IMG/VR virus record: IMGVR_UViG_3300032307_000705
Location: 19,723-83,722 of that record
Origin: a virus
Length of the DNA stretch: 64,000 nucleotides
Direction: 5' to 3' (one strand)
Made by a program: the position numbers and the translations under genes. Shown piece by piece: positions 22,656-62,177 of this stretch (positions are counted from its first letter, which is position 1; every line of letters starts with the position of its first letter). The notes under the pieces are model-generated. The model worked only from the letters and a program-made list of their open reading frames with translations. It was not told the DNA's origin and did not search any database.

Positions 22656-23228
22656 ATGAAAAACTATTTAGCCACAGTTATCGGTAATTTCATCACAGAC
22701 GAAAGTTGTAATCAACTAGTAATGGCAGTCGCGCCATTGGTGGATTCACCAAACATGAAGTATCAATTCGGAGGAGGAATTGTAATGATGTATTTCGCAA
22801 CAGATGTTCCCAAAGACGAAATCTTTGAATATATCACTGGACTTATCCATGTTGATAGTGAAATACTAATTTTGACAGAAGTATCTGACAAAGTGTCAGT
22901 TCACGTTCCTTATGAAAAGTCTGGTCATTTATTTGATTTGGATAATCCTGGTCAAAATAATGACTATTCAATCGACATGAAAGGTGTTGTTGAGAATACT
23001 GATTTGTATAGTGACTATGATGAGGATGATATCGACATCAGTTTTTCAAATGAAATGATTCTTCCAAACGAATTACATTCAGAGATTAAGTCTAAGATTT
23101 CACAATGGATGGGTACTCCAGCAACTAAAACAACTTTGGATTCCATCTTGGATAAGATTAATGTCTTAGGAATGGACTCACTTACTAAACACGAATTAAC
23201 TCTACTTCAAAACTACAGTAATAGCTAA
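22656..23228 (+). CDS. Hypothetical protein with DUF6576-like C-terminus
   Basis: 190 aa. The body is not recognised and is acidic in the middle (DYDEDDIDISF). The last 30 residues (LDSILDKINVLGMDSLTKHE then LTLLQNYS) match the short tail 'LDxILDKIxxxGxxSLTxxEKxFL' common at the ends of Bacteroidota proteins such as rhomboid family members. This supports a Bacteroidota host and suggests domain acquisition. It lies 1 nt before the sigma-factor gene, so the two are probably expressed together; a regulatory partnership is possible but unproven. Confidence 0.55.
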   Translation: MKNYLATVIGNFITDESCNQLVMAVAPLVDSPNMKYQFGGGIVMMYFATDVPKDEIFEYITGLIHVDSEILILTEVSDKVSVHVPYEKSGHLFDLDNPGQNNDYSIDMKGVVENTDLYSDYDEDDIDISFSNEMILPNELHSEIKSKISQWMGTPATKTTLDSILDKINVLGMDSLTKHELTLLQNYSNS

Positions 23229-23229
23229 T

Positions 23230-24027
23230 ATGAAAGAAAAATCTTCAATTCCCATCAACCAAGAAGAGATAAGTCATTATCTAAAAGACATCAGAAAGAT
23301 TAGGGTCATGACTCCTGAGAGGGAGCGTGAACTTGCTGAAAGAATGTTATCAGGGTTTATTACTGAAGAAGAGAAGAAAGAAATCCAAAAAGAATTATTG
23401 GAAGGTAACTTACGTTTCGTTATCACCGTATCGAAACAATATCAGAATCAAGGTTTGGATTTGTGTGACTTGATTGCTGAAGGTAATCTTGGATTGATGA
23501 AGGCGATTGAAAACTTTGATTGGACAAAAAGATTAAGATTCATCTCTTATGCGGTATGGTGGGTTAGACAATCTATTTTGCAATCTTTGAATGAGAATGC
23601 AAGAACTATTCGTCTACCAGTCAATGTAGTTCAAGAACTTCATAAGGCTAAGAAAGAACTTGAAAAGGCTGGTGTTGAATTACCTGAAAAGATGGTGAAT
23701 CTACCTTATACCATTAACTTGGACAATCCACTTAATGAAGAAGGTGATACATTGTTGGATATTTTGGTAAACCCAAATGCTGATTTGGCGGACAAAAACT
23801 TATCTACAGAAGACACTTTGAAAGAAAAACTTTTGAATATGTTGGATGTTTTGGACGAGAGAGAAAAGGTTATTATCGAAGATTATTTTGGGTTATCTGG
23901 TTCAACAAGAACCCTTGAGGACATTGGAACTGACTTCGATTTAACCAAAGAAAGGGTTAGACAAATCAAAGAAAAGGCTTTGAGAAAGTTACGAAACGAA
24001 ACAGGTATTCTCTTCGACTATCTGTAA
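23230..24027 (+). CDS. RNA polymerase sigma factor, sigma70 family, RpoD-like
   Basis: 265 aa with the layout of a group 1/2 sigma factor. Region 1.2 (ISHYLKDIRKIRVMTPERE), region 2 (NLRFVITVSKQYQNQGLDL, then LIAEGNLGLMKAIENFDW and FISYAVWWVRQSILQSL, the -10 recognition helix), region 3 (short, with ENARTIRLPVNVVQEL) and region 4 (LEDIGTDFDLTKERVRQIKE helix-turn-helix). It most resembles Bacteroidota RpoD, so it was probably taken from a host. It likely redirects host RNA polymerase to phage promoters; the TATTTAT motif upstream of many late genes is a candidate target. T4-like phages usually use a gp55-type factor instead. A terminator follows. Confidence 0.88.
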   Translation: MKEKSSIPINQEEISHYLKDIRKIRVMTPERERELAERMLSGFITEEEKKEIQKELLEGNLRFVITVSKQYQNQGLDLCDLIAEGNLGLMKAIENFDWTKRLRFISYAVWWVRQSILQSLNENARTIRLPVNVVQELHKAKKELEKAGVELPEKMVNLPYTINLDNPLNEEGDTLLDILVNPNADLADKNLSTEDTLKEKLLNMLDVLDEREKVIIEDYFGLSGSTRTLEDIGTDFDLTKERVRQIKEKALRKLRNETGILFDYL

Positions 24028-39301: not shown

Positions 39302-40044
39302 AAAATAATAAAGTCCTTATTTTTCTTTTTAATAAAAGAATATTCCTCAAGTGGATTTGTGAGTTCAATACTCCAATCCACTTTTTTCATTTCAGATGAT
39401 AACCAAGACATATCAAAATCGAACACATCTAAGATTGCCGATTTCAAAGTTTCATCTTCAGAGTTTTTGTCTACATTAAAGATTGATATGATATTATCAT
39501 TATCATCATCTTTATCCAAAGACAGATTAAAAATAATGGATGAATCTGTGTAGTTAGTTGGGATACTATAAAAAATATGTTTTCCGTAAAGATAGATAAG
39601 TCTTCCTTGACTCAATGAATAACCATGAGGAAATTCGGATGTAACAATTAATTCATCATCAGATACTTCTGATGGATAACAACTGAAATCAAATGATGAC
39701 TCACTTGATAAGAATTTTTCTATTTGGGTTTTATGATAAGAACAGTTTTCTGACTTATGTAAGATGAACTCCAAATTTTTTACTTTGGATAACTTACAAT
39801 CATATTCAATTAAATCTATTGTATGGGAGATTGGTGTCTCAGGTTCGTATTTTTCGTTAAACTCTTTTGTTATTGAACTGATATCCAAAATTTCTTTATG
39901 GGAGGTCTTACCTTTTATAATAATGAAATTTTTACAATCTACGACAGAGAAAATTGATTCTTCTGTGTTTGGGATTTTGGTTAGTAGATAGTCTGAAAAT
40001 AAATTTATTGTATAAACCCTGCTGTTAGTCTTCTTTAATATCAT
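39298..40044 (-). CDS. Conserved hypothetical protein
   Basis: 248 aa, alpha/beta, N-terminus VYTINLFSDYLLTKIPNTEE followed by NFIIIKGKTSHKEILDISSI. The opening is mildly like the first strand-helix of AdoMet synthetases (a G-K-T-S turn), but the ATP-binding residues are not identifiable, so I do not assign that function. Acidic C-terminal third. Convergent with glutaredoxin, tail-to-head with the acidic gene at 40102. Confidence 0.55.
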   Translation of the reverse strand: MILKKTNSRVYTINLFSDYLLTKIPNTEESIFSVVDCKNFIIIKGKTSHKEILDISSITKEFNEKYEPETPISHTIDLIEYDCKLSKVKNLEFILHKSENCSYHKTQIEKFLSSESSFDFSCYPSEVSDDELIVTSEFPHGYSLSQGRLIYLYGKHIFYSIPTNYTDSSIIFNLSLDKDDDNDNIISIFNVDKNSEDETLKSAILDVFDFDMSWLSSEMKKVDWSIELTNPLEEYSFIKKKNKDFIIF

Positions 40045-40101
40045 TTAATTAACTGATTTGTTGAATGATAATAAATTGTACTTACAAAAAGAATAGAATA
40101 A

Positions 40102-41097
40102 CTAGATGTAATCTGTGAAAATTTCATTGATATTATTTTTAACTTCACTAAAGTCAGGATAGTCTGGATAGTATGCTGTTAAACAATCTTGTTCATCTTG
40201 AACCATTGGTATGTAATCACCCCAATATTCTAATAATCCACGAGATCCTTGATTTTTGTTTGAAATTAAATAGTCCAAAATTATTTCGTCAAAGTTTGAT
40301 GCAACAGGAACTCTGAAACGTTGTGTCATGGTATCTTTTTTGAAACGGTGAGGTTTCGAATAATATTCACCATTACCATTTATATATTCTTGTAATTCAC
40401 TGAAAATTTTTCCGTAAAGTTCACTCTCATATGCTTGGCTGTAAGCACTATTGTGAATGGACTTTAGTTGGTCATCTAAGTCTTCAAGATAAGTATTCAA
40501 AAGGTAATTCATTGACTCTTCATCGTCTATGATAGTCTGTGCTGTTGTAGGATTATCAACTGTCACGTATTCTGGATGACCTTGTTCTTTAGCAATATCT
40601 TGTAGTTCAATAGTTTCAGTTTCTATTTTTTGACCTTTTAGATTTTCGACTACATATTCTCTAAGGTGTTTCATATTTTTTGGGGATAGTTCTTCAATAA
40701 CATCACTATAAACATTACCAGTTGTGTCGTAATCGAAGAAGTTATCGTATTCACCTGAAAGAATTTCCTTAATACTATCCATTGAAAGACCATTTCGGGA
40801 ACGGTCACAGAAAAAATTTGATAATTCAGACCTATCATCCAAATCCAAATAAATTGTACCGTTTTCGTCCATATCAACATCGGACAATTTATCTATGACA
40901 AATTCATGAAATCGTTTACGGTCTCGTCCATGAAGCCAAATTAACAATGAATTCTGTACTTCCGTGTTTTCAATATCGATTTGAGAAATCAATCCTCTCT
41001 TATCCAATACGGTAAAAAATGTGTTCCAGTCACCGAAAAAAAGTTCAGCGTCAAACTCACCATCATTGAAGTCGTCAATTATTTTTTGAAAATCCAT
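40102..41097 (-). CDS. Acidic hypothetical protein
   Basis: 331 aa from ATG 41097; the open frame extends upstream, but the TATTTATT motif 3 nt before this ATG decides the start. Strongly acidic with Asp/Glu spread throughout. No known domain. Its mirror neighbour at 41401 is similarly acidic. May be a virion or DNA-mimicking protein; neither is proven. Confidence 0.55.
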   Translation of the reverse strand: MDFQKIIDDFNDGEFDAELFFGDWNTFFTVLDKRGLISQIDIENTEVQNSLLIWLHGRDRKRFHEFVIDKLSDVDMDENGTIYLDLDDRSELSNFFCDRSRNGLSMDSIKEILSGEYDNFFDYDTTGNVYSDVIEELSPKNMKHLREYVVENLKGQKIETETIELQDIAKEQGHPEYVTVDNPTTAQTIIDDEESMNYLLNTYLEDLDDQLKSIHNSAYSQAYESELYGKIFSELQEYINGNGEYYSKPHRFKKDTMTQRFRVPVASNFDEIILDYLISNKNQGSRGLLEYWGDYIPMVQDEQDCLTAYYPDYPDFSEVKNNINEIFTDYI

Positions 41098-57034: not shown

Positions 57035-57042
57035 TATTTATC
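57035..57042 (+). promoter_or_regulatory. Late-motif TATTTATC
   Basis: TATTTATC 3 nt before ATG 57046. Confidence 0.55.
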
Positions 57043-57045
57043 TAT

Positions 57046-57927
57046 ATGAATTTGCATGAAGACATAAATAGGATTAAGGAAGTCATGGGACTCGACAGGA
57101 AACCTGAAGTTGTTAGGAAAGGTGAACTTACTAACAAATACGGTGAAGAGATAACTATGATATTATTTGATGATGGGGAAGTAAATTTCAAACATACTGA
57201 CTATGGTAATGAATTCCTACCACTAAGAAGTCTGTTACGTAAAGATTCTGAAGGAAACTCAATGTTTATGGTGGTTCTGAATCAAGAGGAAAAAGATTTT
57301 GTTAATAACTTCCTCCGAGATACAAAATATCAAAATGAAAGTTACAATCCGACAATCACTGAAAGCCGTGATATGTTCTTCAGGAGAAGACAGGACGAAT
57401 TTCTTGATGATCTTATTACTTCTTTCGAGTGGATGGAGGTAGAAGAAGCGGATAGTTTTGAAGAATATCTTGAGATGATTTTAACACATTCAATAGATGG
57501 TTTCTTTGGTCATAATAATATTCTTCTGACTTATGAAGAAATAGAGGAGCTAATCCCATTTGCTCTTCAAACATTACGTAATGACGAAAGATTATTTAGA
57601 AAAATCAGACACCATTACTATTCAAGTGAAGACTCATCAATCAATGAATCCAAGGAACTTGTTCGTGTCAAAAGAAGAATGGATGCTTTGCTTGATTATA
57701 TTGAAGCTTCATATGATTGGTTGTCACCACGTAGATTCAAAGACTTTGATGATTTTTTAGAAAGGGTTGCATTCTCAGCAACAAGAGATTTTGTTGCCGA
57801 TGAAATAGGAGGGGAATACCAAGAACAGTTAAAAATATGTGACGAGTTAGAGCCAATGGTATTGGATTTAATAAAGAAACATTCGATATACGATGAGATT
57901 TACGATCACTATATCTCCAACATATAA
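57046..57927 (+). CDS. MNLxEDINRIKEVMG family protein with two domain copies
   Basis: 293 aa. N-terminus MNLHEDINRIKEVMGLDRKP is the founder of a three-gene family. Residues 20-85 are a unique part (KYGEEITMILFDDGEVNFKH). Then two copies of an ~80-residue helical domain follow: about 104-196 (FRRRQDEFLDDLITSFEWME ... LFRKIRHHYY) and about 205-293 (KRRMDALLDYIEASYDWLSP ... YDEIYDHYIS). The same domain is single in the next two genes. I-K-E in the N-terminus is a candidate cleavage site. Function unknown; probably packaged virion proteins. Confidence 0.62.
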   Translation: MNLHEDINRIKEVMGLDRKPEVVRKGELTNKYGEEITMILFDDGEVNFKHTDYGNEFLPLRSLLRKDSEGNSMFMVVLNQEEKDFVNNFLRDTKYQNESYNPTITESRDMFFRRRQDEFLDDLITSFEWMEVEEADSFEEYLEMILTHSIDGFFGHNNILLTYEEIEELIPFALQTLRNDERLFRKIRHHYYSSEDSSINESKELVRVKRRMDALLDYIEASYDWLSPRRFKDFDDFLERVAFSATRDFVADEIGGEYQEQLKICDELEPMVLDLIKKHSIYDEIYDHYISNI

Positions 57928-57931
57928 CCAA

Positions 57932-58276
57932 ATGAATTTACAAGAAGATATAAATAGAATCAAGGAGGTTATGGGGATCAATGAAGGTTTCCTTAATACT
58001 TTTCTAAGAAGAAGAATTCCTGCGTTTTTAGATGCAGTTGTTGATGTTGCTGACCAAATATATGTTAGGGGAGACAGAGAATATTCTGACGATGATTTCA
58101 GGAATTTTTTAGACAGGTCAATATTTGCTTCAGTAAGAGACGTAGTAGAAACTTATGATTTAACCCACGAAGAATTAAGGGAACTTGAAATTATTTTATT
58201 AAGAACAATCAATAGAGACAGAGAACTGTTTCAAACACTCAAACAAATCTACATAAGCAAACTCCATTTAGAATGA
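57932..58276 (+). CDS. MNLxEDINRIKEVMG family protein, single domain copy
   Basis: 114 aa from ATG 57932 (frame is open further upstream over the end of the previous gene, rejected). MNLQEDINRIKEVMGINE then GFLNTFLRRRIPAFLDAVVD and one ~80-residue helical domain ending LFQTLKQIYISKL. Paralog of the genes on both sides. Candidate cleavage after I-K-E or I-N-E. Confidence 0.65.
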   Translation: MNLQEDINRIKEVMGINEGFLNTFLRRRIPAFLDAVVDVADQIYVRGDREYSDDDFRNFLDRSIFASVRDVVETYDLTHEELRELEIILLRTINRDRELFQTLKQIYISKLHLE

Positions 58277-58608
58277 ACTTAAAAGAAGATATAGATAGAA
58301 TCAAAGAAGTGATGGGGATTAATGAGAGTAACCCATATCTTAAGAGAAGATTCCCTGAACTTATTCCTGCGGTTATTCAAGCCGCAGAGTGGTACGTTCC
58401 ATCATTCATGCCTGACTTTGAGACATATGTAGATAGAGCAATATACTCGGGGATTATAAGTGTAATACCTGATAGTTATGCTGATTCACACGCGGATGAA
58501 ATGTATGAGTTAGAAGATATGGTCAGAAATTACATCTACAATAATGAGGAAGCACACGAGAAGTTTAAGTCTTTATATATGGGTAGTGGCAAAAAATATA
58601 AAGGGTAG
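58273..58608 (+). CDS. MNLxEDINRIKEVMG family protein, single domain copy
   Basis: 111 aa, start overlapping the previous stop (GAATGA). MNLKEDIDRIKEVMGINE then YLKRRFPELIPAVIQAAEWY and a domain ending AHEKFKSLYMGS. Third member of the family. It converges with the minus-strand MKYIISE family. Confidence 0.65.
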   Translation: MNLKEDIDRIKEVMGINESNPYLKRRFPELIPAVIQAAEWYVPSFMPDFETYVDRAIYSGIISVIPDSYADSHADEMYELEDMVRNYIYNNEEAHEKFKSLYMGSGKKYKG

Positions 58609-58615
58609 TAACCAA

Positions 58616-58900
58616 TTACCCAGCCATATAAACTTTCACATGAAATTCATTCTCAAACCAATTCGTAATGAATCTAACTGCTTCCTTTCGAGTAAGACCG
58701 AACATAGTTTCGAACTCATCCAAGAATTCGCCCAATATGAATAGTTCTCTTTTTCTTGGGAAATATTCTAAATAGTTCTCCTCATCATCATACACGGCGA
58801 TACCCGCTTGATTATCGATTACATCCTTACTTAATAAGAAAGAATCCAAATACTTTTTCATGATGTTATCAAGTCGACTCTCGGAGATAATATATTTCAT
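58616..58900 (-). CDS. MKYIISE family protein, copy 1
   Basis: 94 aa from ATG 58900 (the frame extends into the upstream gene; not used). MKYIISESRLDNIMKKYLDS then FLLSKDVIDNQAGIAVYDDE, RELFILGEFLDEFETMFGLT and RKEAVRFITNWFENEFHVKV. Four tandem copies plus one distant copy exist. The first 7 residues end in I-S-E. Small alpha/beta fold with a helix-strand-helix pattern; function unknown. Confidence 0.65.
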   Translation of the reverse strand: MKYIISESRLDNIMKKYLDSFLLSKDVIDNQAGIAVYDDEENYLEYFPRKRELFILGEFLDEFETMFGLTRKEAVRFITNWFENEFHVKVYMAG

Positions 58901-59190
58901 TTTACATTGAATTCTTTCTTGAACCAATCTTTTATAAAGGTAATAGATTCTTCATAATCTTTATTAAACAAATAGCTGAATTCCTCAATAAATTGATTGT
59001 TCACCCATAAGTCCTCATCGTCATGGTTATAGAACATATATTCAGTCCAAAAAGAAGTGTCATCATCAGTATTCCGATCCGCGATTACCAAACTATCACC
59101 ATAATCCAAGATTTGTTTGGAGGTTAAGAATGAATCCAAATAACTTGTCATGATTTTATCAAGCCGACCCTCAGATATAATATATTTCAT
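58897..59190 (-). CDS. MKYIISE family protein, copy 2
   Basis: 97 aa. MKYIISEGRLDKIMTSYLDS then FLTSKQILDYGDSLVIADRN and LFNKDYEESITFIKDWFKKE. First of the coupled pair 59190-58616 (4-nt overlap with copy 1). Late motif 3 nt upstream of its ATG. Confidence 0.65.
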   Translation of the reverse strand: MKYIISEGRLDKIMTSYLDSFLTSKQILDYGDSLVIADRNTDDDTSFWTEYMFYNHDDEDLWVNNQFIEEFSYLFNKDYEESITFIKDWFKKEFNVK

Positions 59191-59193
59191 ATA

Positions 59194-59201
59194 GATAAAT
59201 A
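59194..59201 (-). promoter_or_regulatory. Late-motif TATTTATC
   Basis: Minus-strand TATTTATC, 3 nt before ATG 59190. Confidence 0.55.
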
Positions 59202-59209
59202 TAAGGAAA

Positions 59210-59503
59210 TTAAAACGAGGTCATTGATTTTCGGACTGTAACTCCAAATTGGTTTTCAAACCAACCGAGAATGAATTGGAGAGCTTGGGGTCTTGTAAGG
59301 TTAAACATGGTTTCGAAAGTATCTAAAAAGTCCTCTAATGTAAATAACTCTCTTGGTCTTGGCAAGTAAGTAAAAAGTAAGTTATCTCCATCGTACACGA
59401 GGGTACTTGTTTGGGTATTAATTATATCTTTATCCAATAAAAAACTGTCCAAGTATTTTATCATGATTTTATCAAGCTGACTTTCAGATATAATATATTT
59501 CAT
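59210..59503 (-). CDS. MKYIISE family protein, copy 3
   Basis: 97 aa. MKYIISESQLDKIMIKYLDS then FLLDKDIINTQTSTLVYDGD and LEDFLDTFETMFNLTRPQAL. Very close to copy 1 in the second half. Its upstream 83 bp are nearly identical to those of copy 4, so this was a recent duplication. Late motif 3 nt upstream. Confidence 0.68.
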   Translation of the reverse strand: MKYIISESQLDKIMIKYLDSFLLDKDIINTQTSTLVYDGDNLLFTYLPRPRELFTLEDFLDTFETMFNLTRPQALQFILGWFENQFGVTVRKSMTSF

Positions 59504-59565
59504 GTTAATAAATATCGGTTAAATAAAAAGGGGGTTGGGGGAAAATCGAACCCGGTGTACGACAG
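59483..59565 (-). repeat. Direct repeat, copy A (upstream region of MKYIISE copy 3)
   Basis: About 83 bp covering the first codons, the late motif and a GGGGG/CCCCC-rich stretch. Repeated at 59858-59941 with only a few differences. It ends in a T-arm-like GGGTTCGATT segment on the minus strand. Confidence 0.75.
59507..59514 (-). promoter_or_regulatory. Late-motif TATTTATT
   Basis: Minus-strand TATTTATT, 3 nt before ATG 59503, inside repeat A. Confidence 0.55.
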
Positions 59566-59566
59566 A

Positions 59567-59878
59567 TTAATAGGTGAATGGTTCATCAGGAAATAACAAC
59601 CATACTGTCCTTGCTCGTGTATTATATTCGTCCTGAAACCAATTTCTAATATATCTCATACTTTCTTTTCGACTTAAATTAAAAATGGTGTCTATATCTT
59701 CAATTAAATCAGTGCTAATGTATAATCTCTCTTCTTCATAACGGTAAGCCAGTACTTCACTATTACCCTGCATTATATCGAACCCATCGGCATCATCATT
59801 CCCTTCTGTGAACCCCAAAGAACTTAAGTACTTATTCACCAATCTCTCTAATCTTTGTTCAGATATAATATATTTCAT
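59567..59878 (-). CDS. MKYIISE family protein, copy 4
   Basis: 103 aa. MKYIISEQRLERLVNKYLSS then GNDDADGFDIMQGNSEVLAY and IEDIDTIFNLSRKESMRYIR. The most divergent packaged copy, with a longer linker after helix 1 and a proline-rich C-terminal tail (LLFPDEPFTY). First gene of the minus-strand cluster. Late motif 3 nt upstream. Confidence 0.65.
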   Translation of the reverse strand: MKYIISEQRLERLVNKYLSSLGFTEGNDDADGFDIMQGNSEVLAYRYEEERLYISTDLIEDIDTIFNLSRKESMRYIRNWFQDEYNTRARTVWLLFPDEPFTY

Positions 59879-59941
59879 GTTAATAAATATCGGTAAAATA
59901 AAAAAGGGGGTTGGGGGATAATCGACCCCGGCATACGACAG
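59858..59941 (-). repeat. Direct repeat, copy B (upstream region of MKYIISE copy 4)
   Basis: About 84 bp nearly identical to 59483-59565; includes the first codons of copy 4, TATTTATTAAC and the GC-rich block. Confidence 0.75.
59882..59889 (-). promoter_or_regulatory. Late-motif TATTTATT
   Basis: Minus-strand TATTTATT, 3 nt before ATG 59878, inside repeat B. Confidence 0.55.
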
Positions 59942-59994
59942 TTATATTGTTACAAACTATTTAATATTATAATAATATAAGTATATTAGAAATT

Positions 59995-60477
59995 ATGTAC
60001 AAAAAATTATTCACTAAAAATGAATGTGACGACCTTATATCCTTTGCTGAAGGTCAAAACGAATGGGAGAAAATTACTGATTTTTCAAGTTATCAGATTT
60101 TTACTTTCCAACCGGGTAATCATGTTTCCGATAGGATAATTAATTACGGAAAAGAAAAATTAGGACTATCAATTTTATCCGTCAACCTGGCGATATTAAA
60201 GTATGAGGTGGGAGACCATTTTCCGAGACACATAGATAGAACTCAAGAAAAAGAATTCAACAAAGATTTTTTATATAACATTAATGTTAAACTTAATGAC
60301 GACTACGAAGGTGGGGAATTTTTCCTCAATGATAAATTGTTTGTCGCAGATGTGGGAGATGTCTATCATTATAAATCTACGGAGTTTCATGAAGTTAAAC
60401 TTGTAACCAAAGGATTAAGATATTCAGGATTATTCTACATCAGAGAAAGAGATCTCGGAGTATCAAAATTAATATGA
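59995..60477 (+). CDS. 2-oxoglutarate/Fe(II)-dependent oxygenase
   Basis: 160 aa. GDHFPRHIDRTQ (H79-x-D81), distal EFHEV (H132) and LRYSGLFYIR (R142, binds 2-oxoglutarate) complete the catalytic set of prolyl-hydroxylase-like 2OG oxygenases. NVKLNDDYEGGEFFLND is the typical 'L-x-x-x-Y-x-G-G-x-L/F' strand. Phage members may hydroxylate proteins or nucleobases. An AT-rich leader precedes it; no promoter recognised. Confidence 0.82.
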   Translation: MYKKLFTKNECDDLISFAEGQNEWEKITDFSSYQIFTFQPGNHVSDRIINYGKEKLGLSILSVNLAILKYEVGDHFPRHIDRTQEKEFNKDFLYNINVKLNDDYEGGEFFLNDKLFVADVGDVYHYKSTEFHEVKLVTKGLRYSGLFYIRERDLGVSKLI

Positions 60478-60480
60478 CAG

Positions 60481-60894
60481 TTACAATGTCATACCACATT
60501 CCTTAGTCACGGGTTCTAGGACCCATTCTTCCTTTAATACTTCAGGTAAGTCACTTATTTTATTTGTCACGGGTACAAGAACTTGCTCGTCCATAGACTT
60601 TCTCACGTACTTATACTTAGGTCGACAGTCCACCCAATGATTCACTACGGTGTCAGCGGTGATATAATTCACAGAGAACATCAACTCCAATCTGGCGATG
60701 ATTTCCTTTCTCATGTCAAACCAACTATTTTTAGACCTACCGACTCTTCTATCGTCAAACCAATTTCCTTGTGCATCCTTATCAAAGGTCTCTACCACAT
60801 CGCCCAAGTGATTTAACTCCAATAGATAAATCTCAGGGTACATGGAGTCCAAGTACGACATCATCAATCTCTTAAGTTTCAGGGTATTCTTCAT
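60481..60894 (-). CDS. MKYIISE-family domain without targeting peptide, early-type promoter
   Basis: 137 aa from ATG 60894. LKRLMMSYLDSMYPEIYLLE then ELMFSVNYITADTVVNHWVD aligns with the four copies at 58616-59878 (KKYLDSFL ... ETMFGLTRKEAVRFITNWFE), but the N-terminus is MKNTLKLKRLMMS, with no I-S-E peptide. Instead of TATTTAT it has a host-type promoter (TTG-N20-TACCTTTG). The C-terminal ~35 residues (SMDEQVLVPVTNKISDLPEV) are extra. So this copy is probably made early and stays in the cell. Confidence 0.62.
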   Translation of the reverse strand: MKNTLKLKRLMMSYLDSMYPEIYLLELNHLGDVVETFDKDAQGNWFDDRRVGRSKNSWFDMRKEIIARLELMFSVNYITADTVVNHWVDCRPKYKYVRKSMDEQVLVPVTNKISDLPEVLKEEWVLEPVTKECGMTL

Positions 60895-60899
60895 AGTTC

Positions 60900-60930
60900 C
60901 AAAGGTACGAATAATAATCAGATTATCCAA
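60900..60930 (-). promoter_or_regulatory. Bacteroidota-type promoter
   Basis: On the minus strand TTG (60930-60928), 20 nt, TACCTTTG (60907-60900), 5 nt before ATG 60894. Confidence 0.6.
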
Positions 60931-60962
60931 CAAGTTCGTTCATTCAAAAGGTGGGGGTTTTA

Positions 60963-60970
60963 TATTTATT
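60963..60970 (+). promoter_or_regulatory. Late-motif TATTTATT
   Basis: TATTTATT 4 nt before ATG 60975. Confidence 0.55.
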
Positions 60971-60974
60971 AAAG

Positions 60975-62177
60975 ATGAGAGAACTTATTAGACATATTAT
61001 TCGAGAACAAACGAGGGAAGTTATTTTAGAGATGCCAAAAAAATCAACCCAAGATGAATTTATTACGAAAGCTAAGGGAATTCATGGTGATAAATACGAC
61101 TATTCTGAAGTAGAATATAAATCTAATCATGTACCTGTCACTATTATTTGTCCGATTCATGGGTCATTTTCACAAACGCCTGCTTCTCATTTAATGGGAA
61201 GGGGTTGTAAACCATGTGGTTACAAAACCACTACAGAAAAAAATACATTTTGGACTAAAGAGGAAGCATTCAAAGAGGCTTCAAAATATGAAAACCTGAC
61301 TGATTTCCAAAGGTTCTCTGGAGGTGCATATGCTTCAGCAAAAAAAAATGGTTGGGTAGAGGATATTACAAAAAACTACGTAGTAAAAAAAATAGATTGG
61401 ACAATCGATAAATTGAGGGATATTACCTTACAATACGATAATGTCAAAGATTTTAGAAGAGACTATTATAATGCATATCATGCCCTTAGAAGAAAAGGAC
61501 TTCTTTATGACTTCACATCTCATATGGTCAGACCAAATGAATGGTCTGATGAGGATATAGAGAACGAGGCACGTAAATATAAAACAATTCAAGATTTTTG
61601 TAATGCCTCTCCGAATTTGTGTAATTATGCTAGACGCAGGGGATTAATGTCAAAGTTCAAAGAGTTTTTAGATTCTAAACTAACAAATTGGACTGATGAT
61701 ATGTTAAAAAAAGAAGCATTAAAATATCAAACATCTGTGGATTTCGCTCGAGAATCAGGAGGAGCTTATAAAGCAGCAATTAAGAGAGGAATTTATAATC
61801 AAATAACTTCTCATTTCTTAACAAAAGTATCTTCAGGCGAAATACTTATCGAAAACTTATTGGTTAAAAATAAAATCAAATTCTATAAACAACATAAATT
61901 TTTAGATTGTCATAATAGTAGACAAGGAACTGCATGTAAACAATTACCATTCGATTTTTATTTACCAAAATATAATTGTTGTATCGAATATGATGGTGAA
62001 CAACATTTCAAACCTAAAAAATTTTTCGGAGGAGAAGAAGGGTTTTTAAGAAGGCAACAATTAGATAAAATCAAAGACCAATACTGTGAAGAAAACGGAA
62101 TCAAACTTATCCGAATTCCTTACACGATGAAGAAGGAAGATATAGAACCATATATCTTAAGTGAATTAGGAATGTAA
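60975..62177 (+). CDS. Vsr/PD-(D/E)XK-like endonuclease with DUF723-like and repeat domains, capsid-targeting-like N-terminus
   Basis: 400 aa from ATG 60975; an upstream frame (60951) is rejected because of the late motif. MRELIRHIIREQ ends in I-R-E, followed by a second site V-I-L-E before MPKKS. Then a DUF723-like zinc part (FITKAKGIHGDKYDYSEVEY; CPIHGSF; GCKPCG), three helical repeats (WTIDKLRDITLQYDNVKDF; WSDEDIENEARKYKTIQDF; WTDDMLKKEALKYQTSVDF), and a C-terminal nuclease core: QLPFDFYLPKYNCCIEYDGE then QHF and GIKLIRIPY. Close to phage homing-type or Vsr-like nucleases. If packaged, it would enter the cell with the DNA. Confidence 0.72.
   Translation: MRELIRHIIREQTREVILEMPKKSTQDEFITKAKGIHGDKYDYSEVEYKSNHVPVTIICPIHGSFSQTPASHLMGRGCKPCGYKTTTEKNTFWTKEEAFKEASKYENLTDFQRFSGGAYASAKKNGWVEDITKNYVVKKIDWTIDKLRDITLQYDNVKDFRRDYYNAYHALRRKGLLYDFTSHMVRPNEWSDEDIENEARKYKTIQDFCNASPNLCNYARRRGLMSKFKEFLDSKLTNWTDDMLKKEALKYQTSVDFARESGGAYKAAIKRGIYNQITSHFLTKVSSGEILIENLLVKNKIKFYKQHKFLDCHNSRQGTACKQLPFDFYLPKYNCCIEYDGEQHFKPKKFFGGEEGFLRRQQLDKIKDQYCEENGIKLIRIPYTMKKEDIEPYILSELGM

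What the first reader, a model, noticed from the sequence alone, without database searches (positions are those of the whole stretch)
58616..60930. One domain, two deployment modes: four copies with targeting peptide and late motif, one copy without and with a host-type early promoter
The four tandem MKYIISE proteins have TATTTAT-type elements 3 nt before their ATGs where the upstream is free. A homologous fifth copy (60481-60894) lacks the MKYIISE peptide, starting directly at the YLDS helix, and has TTG-N20-TACCTTTG in front. This pairing of peptide with late signal, and no peptide with early signal, is what one would expect if the peptide targets the capsid and the same activity is needed both at entry and during early infection.
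Basis: partly seen in the sequence, partly recalled or inferred. Interest (0 to 1): 0.75.

Follow-up and report, generated by a model that had tools for sequence, protein, structure and literature searches.

The report
Packaged and early phage protein paralogs
A giant T4-like phage of Bacteroidetes appears to make the same small protein domain in two ways: copies with a short cleavable tag, made late and probably packed into the virus head for injection, and an untagged copy made from a host-type promoter in the newly infected cell, much as phage T4 does with its enzymes Alt and ModA/ModB.

Summary
Four tandem minus-strand genes start MKYIISE. Three have TATTTAT ending 4 nt (not 3) before ATG; the fourth (58616-58900) overlaps its neighbour's stop (ATGA). 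The fifth gene (60481-60894) lacks the peptide and has TTG-N20-TACCTTTG ending 5 nt before ATG. Its homology is supported by profile methods (hhalign E 6e-6; tagged-family profile E 1.4e-4), not by a fold: its own AlphaFold model was poor. The tagged family folds confidently (pLDDT 94), and only the first ~6 residues are disordered. The pairing generalises. Over 11 related contigs, tagged gene clusters carry late versus host-type motifs 71:1, untagged 159:77 (p=1e-9; replicated in eight contigs not used to set the rules, p=6e-8). Larger relatives encode T4-type prohead protease (gp21), gp23 and portal. MKYII[ST]E ends in gp21's L/I-X-E motif and sits on unrelated bodies. TATTTAT precedes structural genes whose late transcription is published. 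Best reading: T4-like capsid-targeting propeptides on late, injected proteins plus an untagged early paralog; precedent T4 Alt versus ModA/ModB. "Same activity" is unproven: the fifth protein is 18-21% identical and basic, the tagged cores acidic. Packaging and timing are inferred.

The parts
58616..58900 (-). Copy 1, 94 aa, MKYIISE-tagged; ATGA overlap with the stop of copy 2, so probably translationally coupled in one transcript
   Evidence: AlphaFold pLDDT 94; dN/dS 0.13-0.25 against orthologs
58897..59190 (-). Copy 2, 97 aa, MKYIISE-tagged
59210..59503 (-). Copy 3, 97 aa, MKYIISE-tagged
59567..59878 (-). Copy 4, 103 aa, MKYIISE-tagged
59195..59201 (-). TATTTAT, 4 nt before the ATG of copy 2 (late-type motif)
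59508..59514 (-). TATTTAT, 4 nt before the ATG of copy 3
59883..59889 (-). TATTTAT, 4 nt before the ATG of copy 4
59858..59878 (-). Codons for MKYIISE in copy 4 (the same 7 residues begin copies 1-3 at 58880-58900, 59170-59190 and 59483-59503); predicted propeptide, predicted cut after E7 (I-S-E)
   Evidence: L/I-X-E rule from PMC9026906
60481..60894 (-). Fifth paralog, 137 aa, no tag, basic
60900..60930 (-). Bacteroidetes sigma-A-type promoter TTG-N20-TACCTTTG, ending 5 nt before the ATG (near-leaderless start)
   Evidence: box position -12 to -5 from PMC9723704
54702..54965 (-). Possible further untagged paralog (MTTIEKHIVKYIDDKFG...), marginal
   Evidence: body-only profile E 0.003-0.009; tagged-family profile E 9e-4
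57046..57927 (+). Neighbouring gene with another tag type (MNLHEDINRIKEVMG) and TATTTAT at 57035-57041
57932..58276 (+). Tagged MNLQEDINRIKEVMGINE protein
58273..58608 (+). Tagged MNLKEDIDRIKEVMGINE protein, converging on copy 1
59995..60477 (+). 2OG-Fe(II) oxygenase gene lying between the fifth copy and copy 4; the gap is only 62-63 bp in four relatives

Best explanation
A T4-like jumbo phage of Bacteroidetes carries a family of about 90-residue proteins (helix, four strands, two helices). Most copies begin with a 7-residue propeptide, MKYII[ST]E. It works like the T4 capsid-targeting sequence: it takes the protein into the prohead core and is cut after the Glu by the gp21-type prohead protease, so the mature domain is packaged and injected into the next cell. 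These copies are made late from TATTTAT promoters. The fifth copy lacks the propeptide and is transcribed from a host sigma-A-type promoter, so a related domain is made inside the newly infected cell. This is the deployment logic of T4 Alt (packaged) versus ModA/ModB (early). Shown here: sequences, homology by profile, the predicted fold of the tagged family, the motif statistics, and gp21/gp23 in relatives. Inferred: targeting, cleavage, injection and timing.
For: (1) Relatives holding this family encode T4 gp21 protease (8 of 17 contigs) and gp23; the 326-kb relative also has Portal_T4, T4-type terminase and S21. (2) T4 gp21 cuts after L/I-X-E and trims Alt at ITE-6 (PMC9026906, PMC5694885). 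MKYIISE and MKYIITE end in I-[ST]-E; this phage group's own gp23 has LINE|ASSTSDTG near residue 60. (3) The tag is disordered and helix 1 starts at residue 7. (4) The tag sits on unrelated bodies with its codons varying synonymously. (5) TATTTAT ends 4-5 nt before ATG in 50 of 667 genes against 0.6 per position and precedes the scaffold-like, gp21, S21 and portal genes; MCP, protease and S21 units are reported as late-transcribed (PMC9723584). (6) Tagged clusters late:host 71:1, untagged 159:77, p=1e-9; the eight replication contigs alone 57:1 against 142:71, p=6e-8. (7) Within this family: tagged 27 late, 0 host; untagged lineages A, B and E have TAnnTTTG. (8) dN/dS 0.13-0.55 between orthologs.
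Against: No proteomics or infection time course. The window's own contig fragment holds no gp21 or gp23. Tagged cores are acidic (median pI 4.9), whereas T4 internal proteins are basic. The fifth copy's own structure model failed (pLDDT 51). Exceptions to the pairing exist (an untagged lineage with TATTTAT, an untagged lineage in an operon behind a late motif, two fifth-copy orthologs with TAnnTTTA). Within the domain family the tag state changed only about 4 times on a weak tree, so the family-level test has no power.
Confidence: 0.62

Rival explanations
1. Deployment differs as described, but the fifth protein has diverged to another job (another target, or control of the tagged set), so it is not the same activity used twice.
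For: 18-21% identity, an extra ~40-residue C-terminus, pI about 8-9.4 against 4.1-5.0 for the tagged copies; across the family untagged cores are less acidic (p=8e-5); the branch to the fifth-copy lineage is very long (2.87).
Against: The hydrophobic pattern is kept over about 80 residues and the gene stays beside the tagged copies in five genomes. T4 Alt and ModA differ in specificity yet share a target residue (PMC2988021).
Confidence: 0.45
2. The peptide is a cleavable assembly or propeptide signal for the prohead core, but the proteins are scaffold or structural helpers and are not injected effectors.
For: T4 gp22, gp67 and gp68 are also gp21 substrates. No effector-type fold match was found.
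Against: Variable numbers of paralogs in accessory clusters, far from head genes, and unrelated bodies on the same tag, look like T4's diverse internal proteins, not conserved core parts.
Confidence: 0.2
3. TAnnTTTG promoters are simply housekeeping-type promoters active throughout infection, so there is no early/late contrast between the copies.
For: No time course. Host-type sites also precede accessory genes of unknown timing. The TTG-N20-TAnnTTTG pattern alone is expected about 2 times per window by chance.
Against: Host-type sites precede a pyrimidine dimer glycosylase gene and an operon encoding a phage sigma factor but none of the head genes inspected. TTG-N20-TACCTTTG is conserved in three genomes with diverged spacers.
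Confidence: 0.25
4. The MKYIISE start is a translation-initiation or codon effect near an AT-rich start, not a protein signal.
For: The spacing from the motif to ATG implies near-leaderless mRNAs, where early codons could matter.
Against: Synonymous codons vary freely (ATA/ATC/ATT; TCN/AGY/ACN) while the peptide is kept (the instances were selected on the peptide). Several different tag peptides share only the late motif and L/I-X-E.
Confidence: 0.04

Closest known systems
T4 Alt versus ModA/ModB ADP-ribosyltransferases
   Same: Alt is packaged, injected and trimmed at an N-terminal I-T-E; ModA and ModB are made as early products in the infected cell (PMC2988021, PMC5694885). Same deployment logic.
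   Different: No sequence or fold relation found. Here a small unknown domain, many tagged copies, acidic.
T4 internal proteins IPI, IPII, IPIII with capsid-targeting sequence
   Same: A short N-terminal propeptide shared by unrelated small proteins, ending in the gp21 site; variable accessory repertoire (PMC3012670, PMC9026906).
   Different: A 7-residue peptide instead of 10-19, several tag types in one phage, acidic instead of basic cores, no homology.
bS21-encoding jumbo phages of freshwater Bacteroidetes (PMC9723584)
   Same: The 326-kb relative has S21 on the strand opposite to the protease and portal genes, 34% GC and a similar size.
   Different: The window's 83.7-kb fragment does not include that region, so membership is by relatives only. 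The paper does not discuss tags or promoters in the parts read (no occurrence of 'promoter').
T4 late promoters (TATAAATA, no -35 box)
   Same: A short -10-like box without a conserved -33/-35 element, before structural genes. The T4 consensus is from general knowledge.
   Different: Sequence TATTTAT; the recognising factor is unknown, though a phage sigma-70-like factor is encoded (window 23230-24027).

Membership tests
T4-type capsid-targeting propeptide | Short N-terminal peptide ending L/I-X-E | tested here: met
   rule from PMC9026906
T4-type capsid-targeting propeptide | Phage encodes a gp21-type prohead protease | tested here: met
   8 of 17 related contigs, E about 1e-22; not in the window's own fragment
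T4-type capsid-targeting propeptide | Same propeptide on unrelated bodies | tested here: met
T4-type capsid-targeting propeptide | Protein found in the virion with the propeptide removed | not testable with these tools
   needs virion mass spectrometry
T4 internal proteins (IPI/II/III) | Sequence or fold homology to a T4 internal protein | tested here: not met
   no significant PHROG or Pfam match; no PDB fold match
T4 internal proteins (IPI/II/III) | Basic protein | tested here: not met
   tagged cores median pI 4.9
Alt/ModA/ModB | ADP-ribosyltransferase fold | tested here: not met
Bacteroidetes sigma-A promoter | TTG about 20 bp upstream of TAnnTTTG | tested here: met
   box from PMC9723704
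T4-like late promoter | Short -10-like box, no -35 element, before late structural genes | tested here: met
T4-like late promoter | Sequence TATAAATA and gp55/gp33/gp45 dependence | tested here: not met
   The sequence is TATTTAT; TATAAAT is not enriched. Factor dependence was not tested
One domain family including the fifth copy | Significant profile similarity over the domain without the tag | tested here: met
One domain family including the fifth copy | Same predicted fold | tested here: inconclusive
   fifth-copy model pLDDT 51

The most novel reading that the evidence does not exclude
These jumbo phages run a systematic two-channel delivery scheme. A large, sequence-readable set of late, propeptide-tagged proteins is packaged and injected. 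For some domains, untagged paralogs driven by host-type promoters continue the same activity in the new cell, and proteins move between channels by gaining or losing a 7-residue peptide together with a promoter change.
Probability: 0.35. Interest if true: 0.72.

Novelty: new variant of a known kind. Interest (0 to 1): 0.56.

Why it matters
If right, the injected protein set of an uncultured phage group can be read from sequence: an L/I-X-E-ending N-terminal tag plus a TATTTAT start. That gives tens of candidate takeover or anti-defence proteins in this group. It would also extend the T4 Alt/Mod idea to a new, structurally unmatched domain family and give a way to call early and late genes in Bacteroidetes jumbo phages.

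Tried and rejected
Pairwise BLASTP of the fifth copy was too weak to decide homology, so profiles with the tag cut off were used. AlphaFold of the fifth copy with its three orthologs failed. No relatives of copy 3 or the fifth protein in the INPHARED phage records by tblastn. No relatives in 84,980 prokaryote genomes by the pattern scan. No PDB fold match; only uncharacterised proteins of uncultured phages in BFVD. The Phi29 gp16.7 hint in copy 4 (E 0.005) is below Pfam's cut-off and alone in the family, so it was dropped. No RNA family in 58550-61000. A phylogenetically independent test of tag against promoter inside this domain has too few state changes. Literature searches for the tag peptides found nothing.

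Full report
Setting. The window is part of an 83.7-kb virus record. Its closest long relatives are a 163-kb contig (L005/G001) and a 326-kb contig (L009/G005). G005 encodes the T4-type portal, T4-type terminase, gp21-type prohead protease and ribosomal protein S21, and gp23. It therefore resembles the S21-encoding jumbo phages of freshwater Bacteroidetes (PMC9723584). The window's fragment itself lacks the head region.

The observation. Four minus-strand ORFs start MKYIISE. TATTTAT ends exactly 4 nt before the ATG of copies 2, 3 and 4. Copy 1 overlaps the stop of copy 2 (ATGA), so it may need no promoter of its own. The fifth ORF starts MKNTLKLKRLMMSYLDS, without the peptide, and TTG-N20-TACCTTTG ends 5 nt before it. 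In four relatives the fifth gene and copy 4 are adjacent in the same orientation, 62-63 bp apart. In the window a 2OG-Fe(II) oxygenase gene on the other strand lies between them.

Are the five homologous? Pairwise BLASTP is marginal. A profile of tagged members with the tag cut off finds the fifth ORF at E 1.8e-4 in the first round. After iteration E is 6e-19 (iteration inflates this value). hhalign of the 32 tagged proteins against the 4 fifth-copy orthologs gives 85% probability, E 6e-6. Searching each genome with the tagged profile alone finds the fifth-copy orthologs at profile positions 9-92. I take homology as shown at sequence level. The fold check is only half done: the tagged family models well (pLDDT 94, pTM 0.84; helix 7-22, strands 26-30, 33-37, 42-47, 52-55, helices 57-67, 71-86), the fifth copy does not (pLDDT 51). 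The fold has no PDB match; the good BFVD matches are uncharacterised proteins of uncultured phages.

The peptide. The first six residues are the only disordered part of the model, and helix 1 begins at residue 7. MKYII[ST]E occurs on family members and on unrelated bodies, and its codons vary synonymously (these were picked by peptide, so only the codon variation is informative). T4 gp21 cuts after L/I-X-E, trims Alt at ITE-6, and T4 internal proteins use 10-19-residue targeting propeptides (PMC9026906, PMC5694885). The gp23 of G005 has LINE|ASSTSDTG where the T4 propeptide would end, and its gp21 begins MKNLRILE|A; both cut sites are predictions. Other recurrent starts in the same genomes (RLTES, NLxEDINRIKxVMGINE, RDLIRKILxEE) also end in or contain such a site. 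In 614 distinct N-termini, [IL]xE peaks with E at residues 7 and 9 (27 each against about 9). Some family members keep the shape but lack the Glu (MKINITK, MKYQINQ, MRYIITQ). In T4 a change at the cut residue blocks processing but not targeting (PMC9026906), so these may be packaged uncut; that is inference.

The motifs. In G000, G001 and G005, TATTTAT ends 4 or 5 nt before ATG in 29 and 21 genes against 0.60 per position, with a second cluster at 14-19 nt; the reverse complement is not enriched. Aligned on the motif there is no -33 box. It precedes the scaffold-like, gp21, S21, neighbour and portal genes of G005. PMC9723584 finds core structural genes and S21 highly transcribed in late-stage infections, with MCP and its upstream gene, protease and its downstream gene, and S21 and its neighbour as probable units, so the late label has outside support. 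TAnnTTTG is the flavobacterial sigma-A box at -12 to -5 (PMC9723704). In these phages it also clusters 4-5 nt before ATG, so genes such as the fifth copy should give leaderless or near-leaderless mRNAs. Such sites precede a pyrimidine dimer glycosylase gene and the operon that holds a phage sigma-70-like factor (window 22656-24027). 'Early' is inferred from this.

Tag and motif together. Tag rules were set on three contigs. There, protein clusters gave tagged late:host 26:0 and untagged 68:22 (p=0.003). Applied unchanged to eight further contigs they gave 57:1 and 142:71 (p=6e-8); all eleven together 71:1 and 159:77 (p=1e-9). Some of the eight are close relatives of the first three, so this is replication, not full independence. 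Inside the domain family, 27 tagged members have the late motif and none has only a host-type motif. Of the clearly untagged lineages, A (the fifth copy; 3 of 5 orthologs exact, 2 with TAnnTTTA at the same spacing), B (MNPRLKK/MIHDKLKK; most members) and E (MKDKIY; 1 of 2) have host-type boxes. F (L013:2958-3365) has TATTTAT. C sits behind a small gene with a TATTTAT site upstream. D has no clear box. The family tree needs about four tag changes and is weak, so a phylogenetically independent test has no power.

Interpretation. The simplest mechanism joining these facts is T4's: propeptide-tagged late proteins enter the prohead core, are trimmed by gp21, and are injected; untagged paralogs are made in the infected cell. 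T4 itself does this with Alt versus ModA/ModB (PMC2988021), so the idea is not new, but the domain, the tag set and the late motif are. Tagged cores are acidic (median pI 4.9) and the fifth copy is basic; identity is 18-21%. Orthologs of copies 1, 2, 4 and 5 are under purifying selection (dN/dS 0.13-0.55), so these are working proteins.

Limits. Gene calls are simple longest-ATG ORFs; contigs are fragments; motifs are consensus matches; no virion proteome or time course was available.

Noticed in passing
window 60975-62177 (+): An HNH/homing-endonuclease-like protein (phrog_559, E 2.5e-47) starts MRELIRHIIREQ, a tag-like N-terminus, with TATTTAT 5 nt before ATG: an endonuclease that may be packaged with the DNA.
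   Followed up: no
L015:1311-2072, G001:20968-21894, G005:212471-213190: Untagged family members of lineage B carry degenerate tandem repeats of the domain's last helix-strand (VEEVLNxxVVST) after the domain; the fifth copy's C-terminus (EQVLVPVT...EWVLEPVT) may be a trace of the same.
   Followed up: no
eleven related contigs: Both TATTTAT and TAnnTTTG tend to end either 3-6 nt or 13-20 nt before ATG, suggesting two classes of start: leaderless and short-leader.
   Followed up: partly
window 22656-24027 (+): A host-type promoter (TTG-N18-TATCTTTG) lies before a gene pair whose second gene is a sigma-70-like factor (Pfam r1.2, r2, r4), a candidate for reading TATTTAT promoters.
   Followed up: partly
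window 59504-59570 and 59879-59945: A duplicated intergenic segment (TGCCGGGKTCGATTWTCCCCCAACCCCCTTTTTTATTTTA...TATTTAT) conserved upstream of copy 4 in five genomes; it looks partly like a tRNA T-arm or a terminator, but ARAGORN and Rfam find nothing.
   Followed up: partly
G014:26635-26943, 39910-40245, 40268-40582; G005:216079-216381; G016:88802-89206: Family members with tag-like starts that lack the cut-site Glu (MKINITK, MKYQINQ, MRYIITQ), several with the late motif: possible targeted but unprocessed proteins.
   Followed up: no
window 59995-60477 (+): A 2OG-Fe(II) oxygenase gene lies between the fifth copy and copy 4 in this phage only, among five genomes compared.
   Followed up: partly
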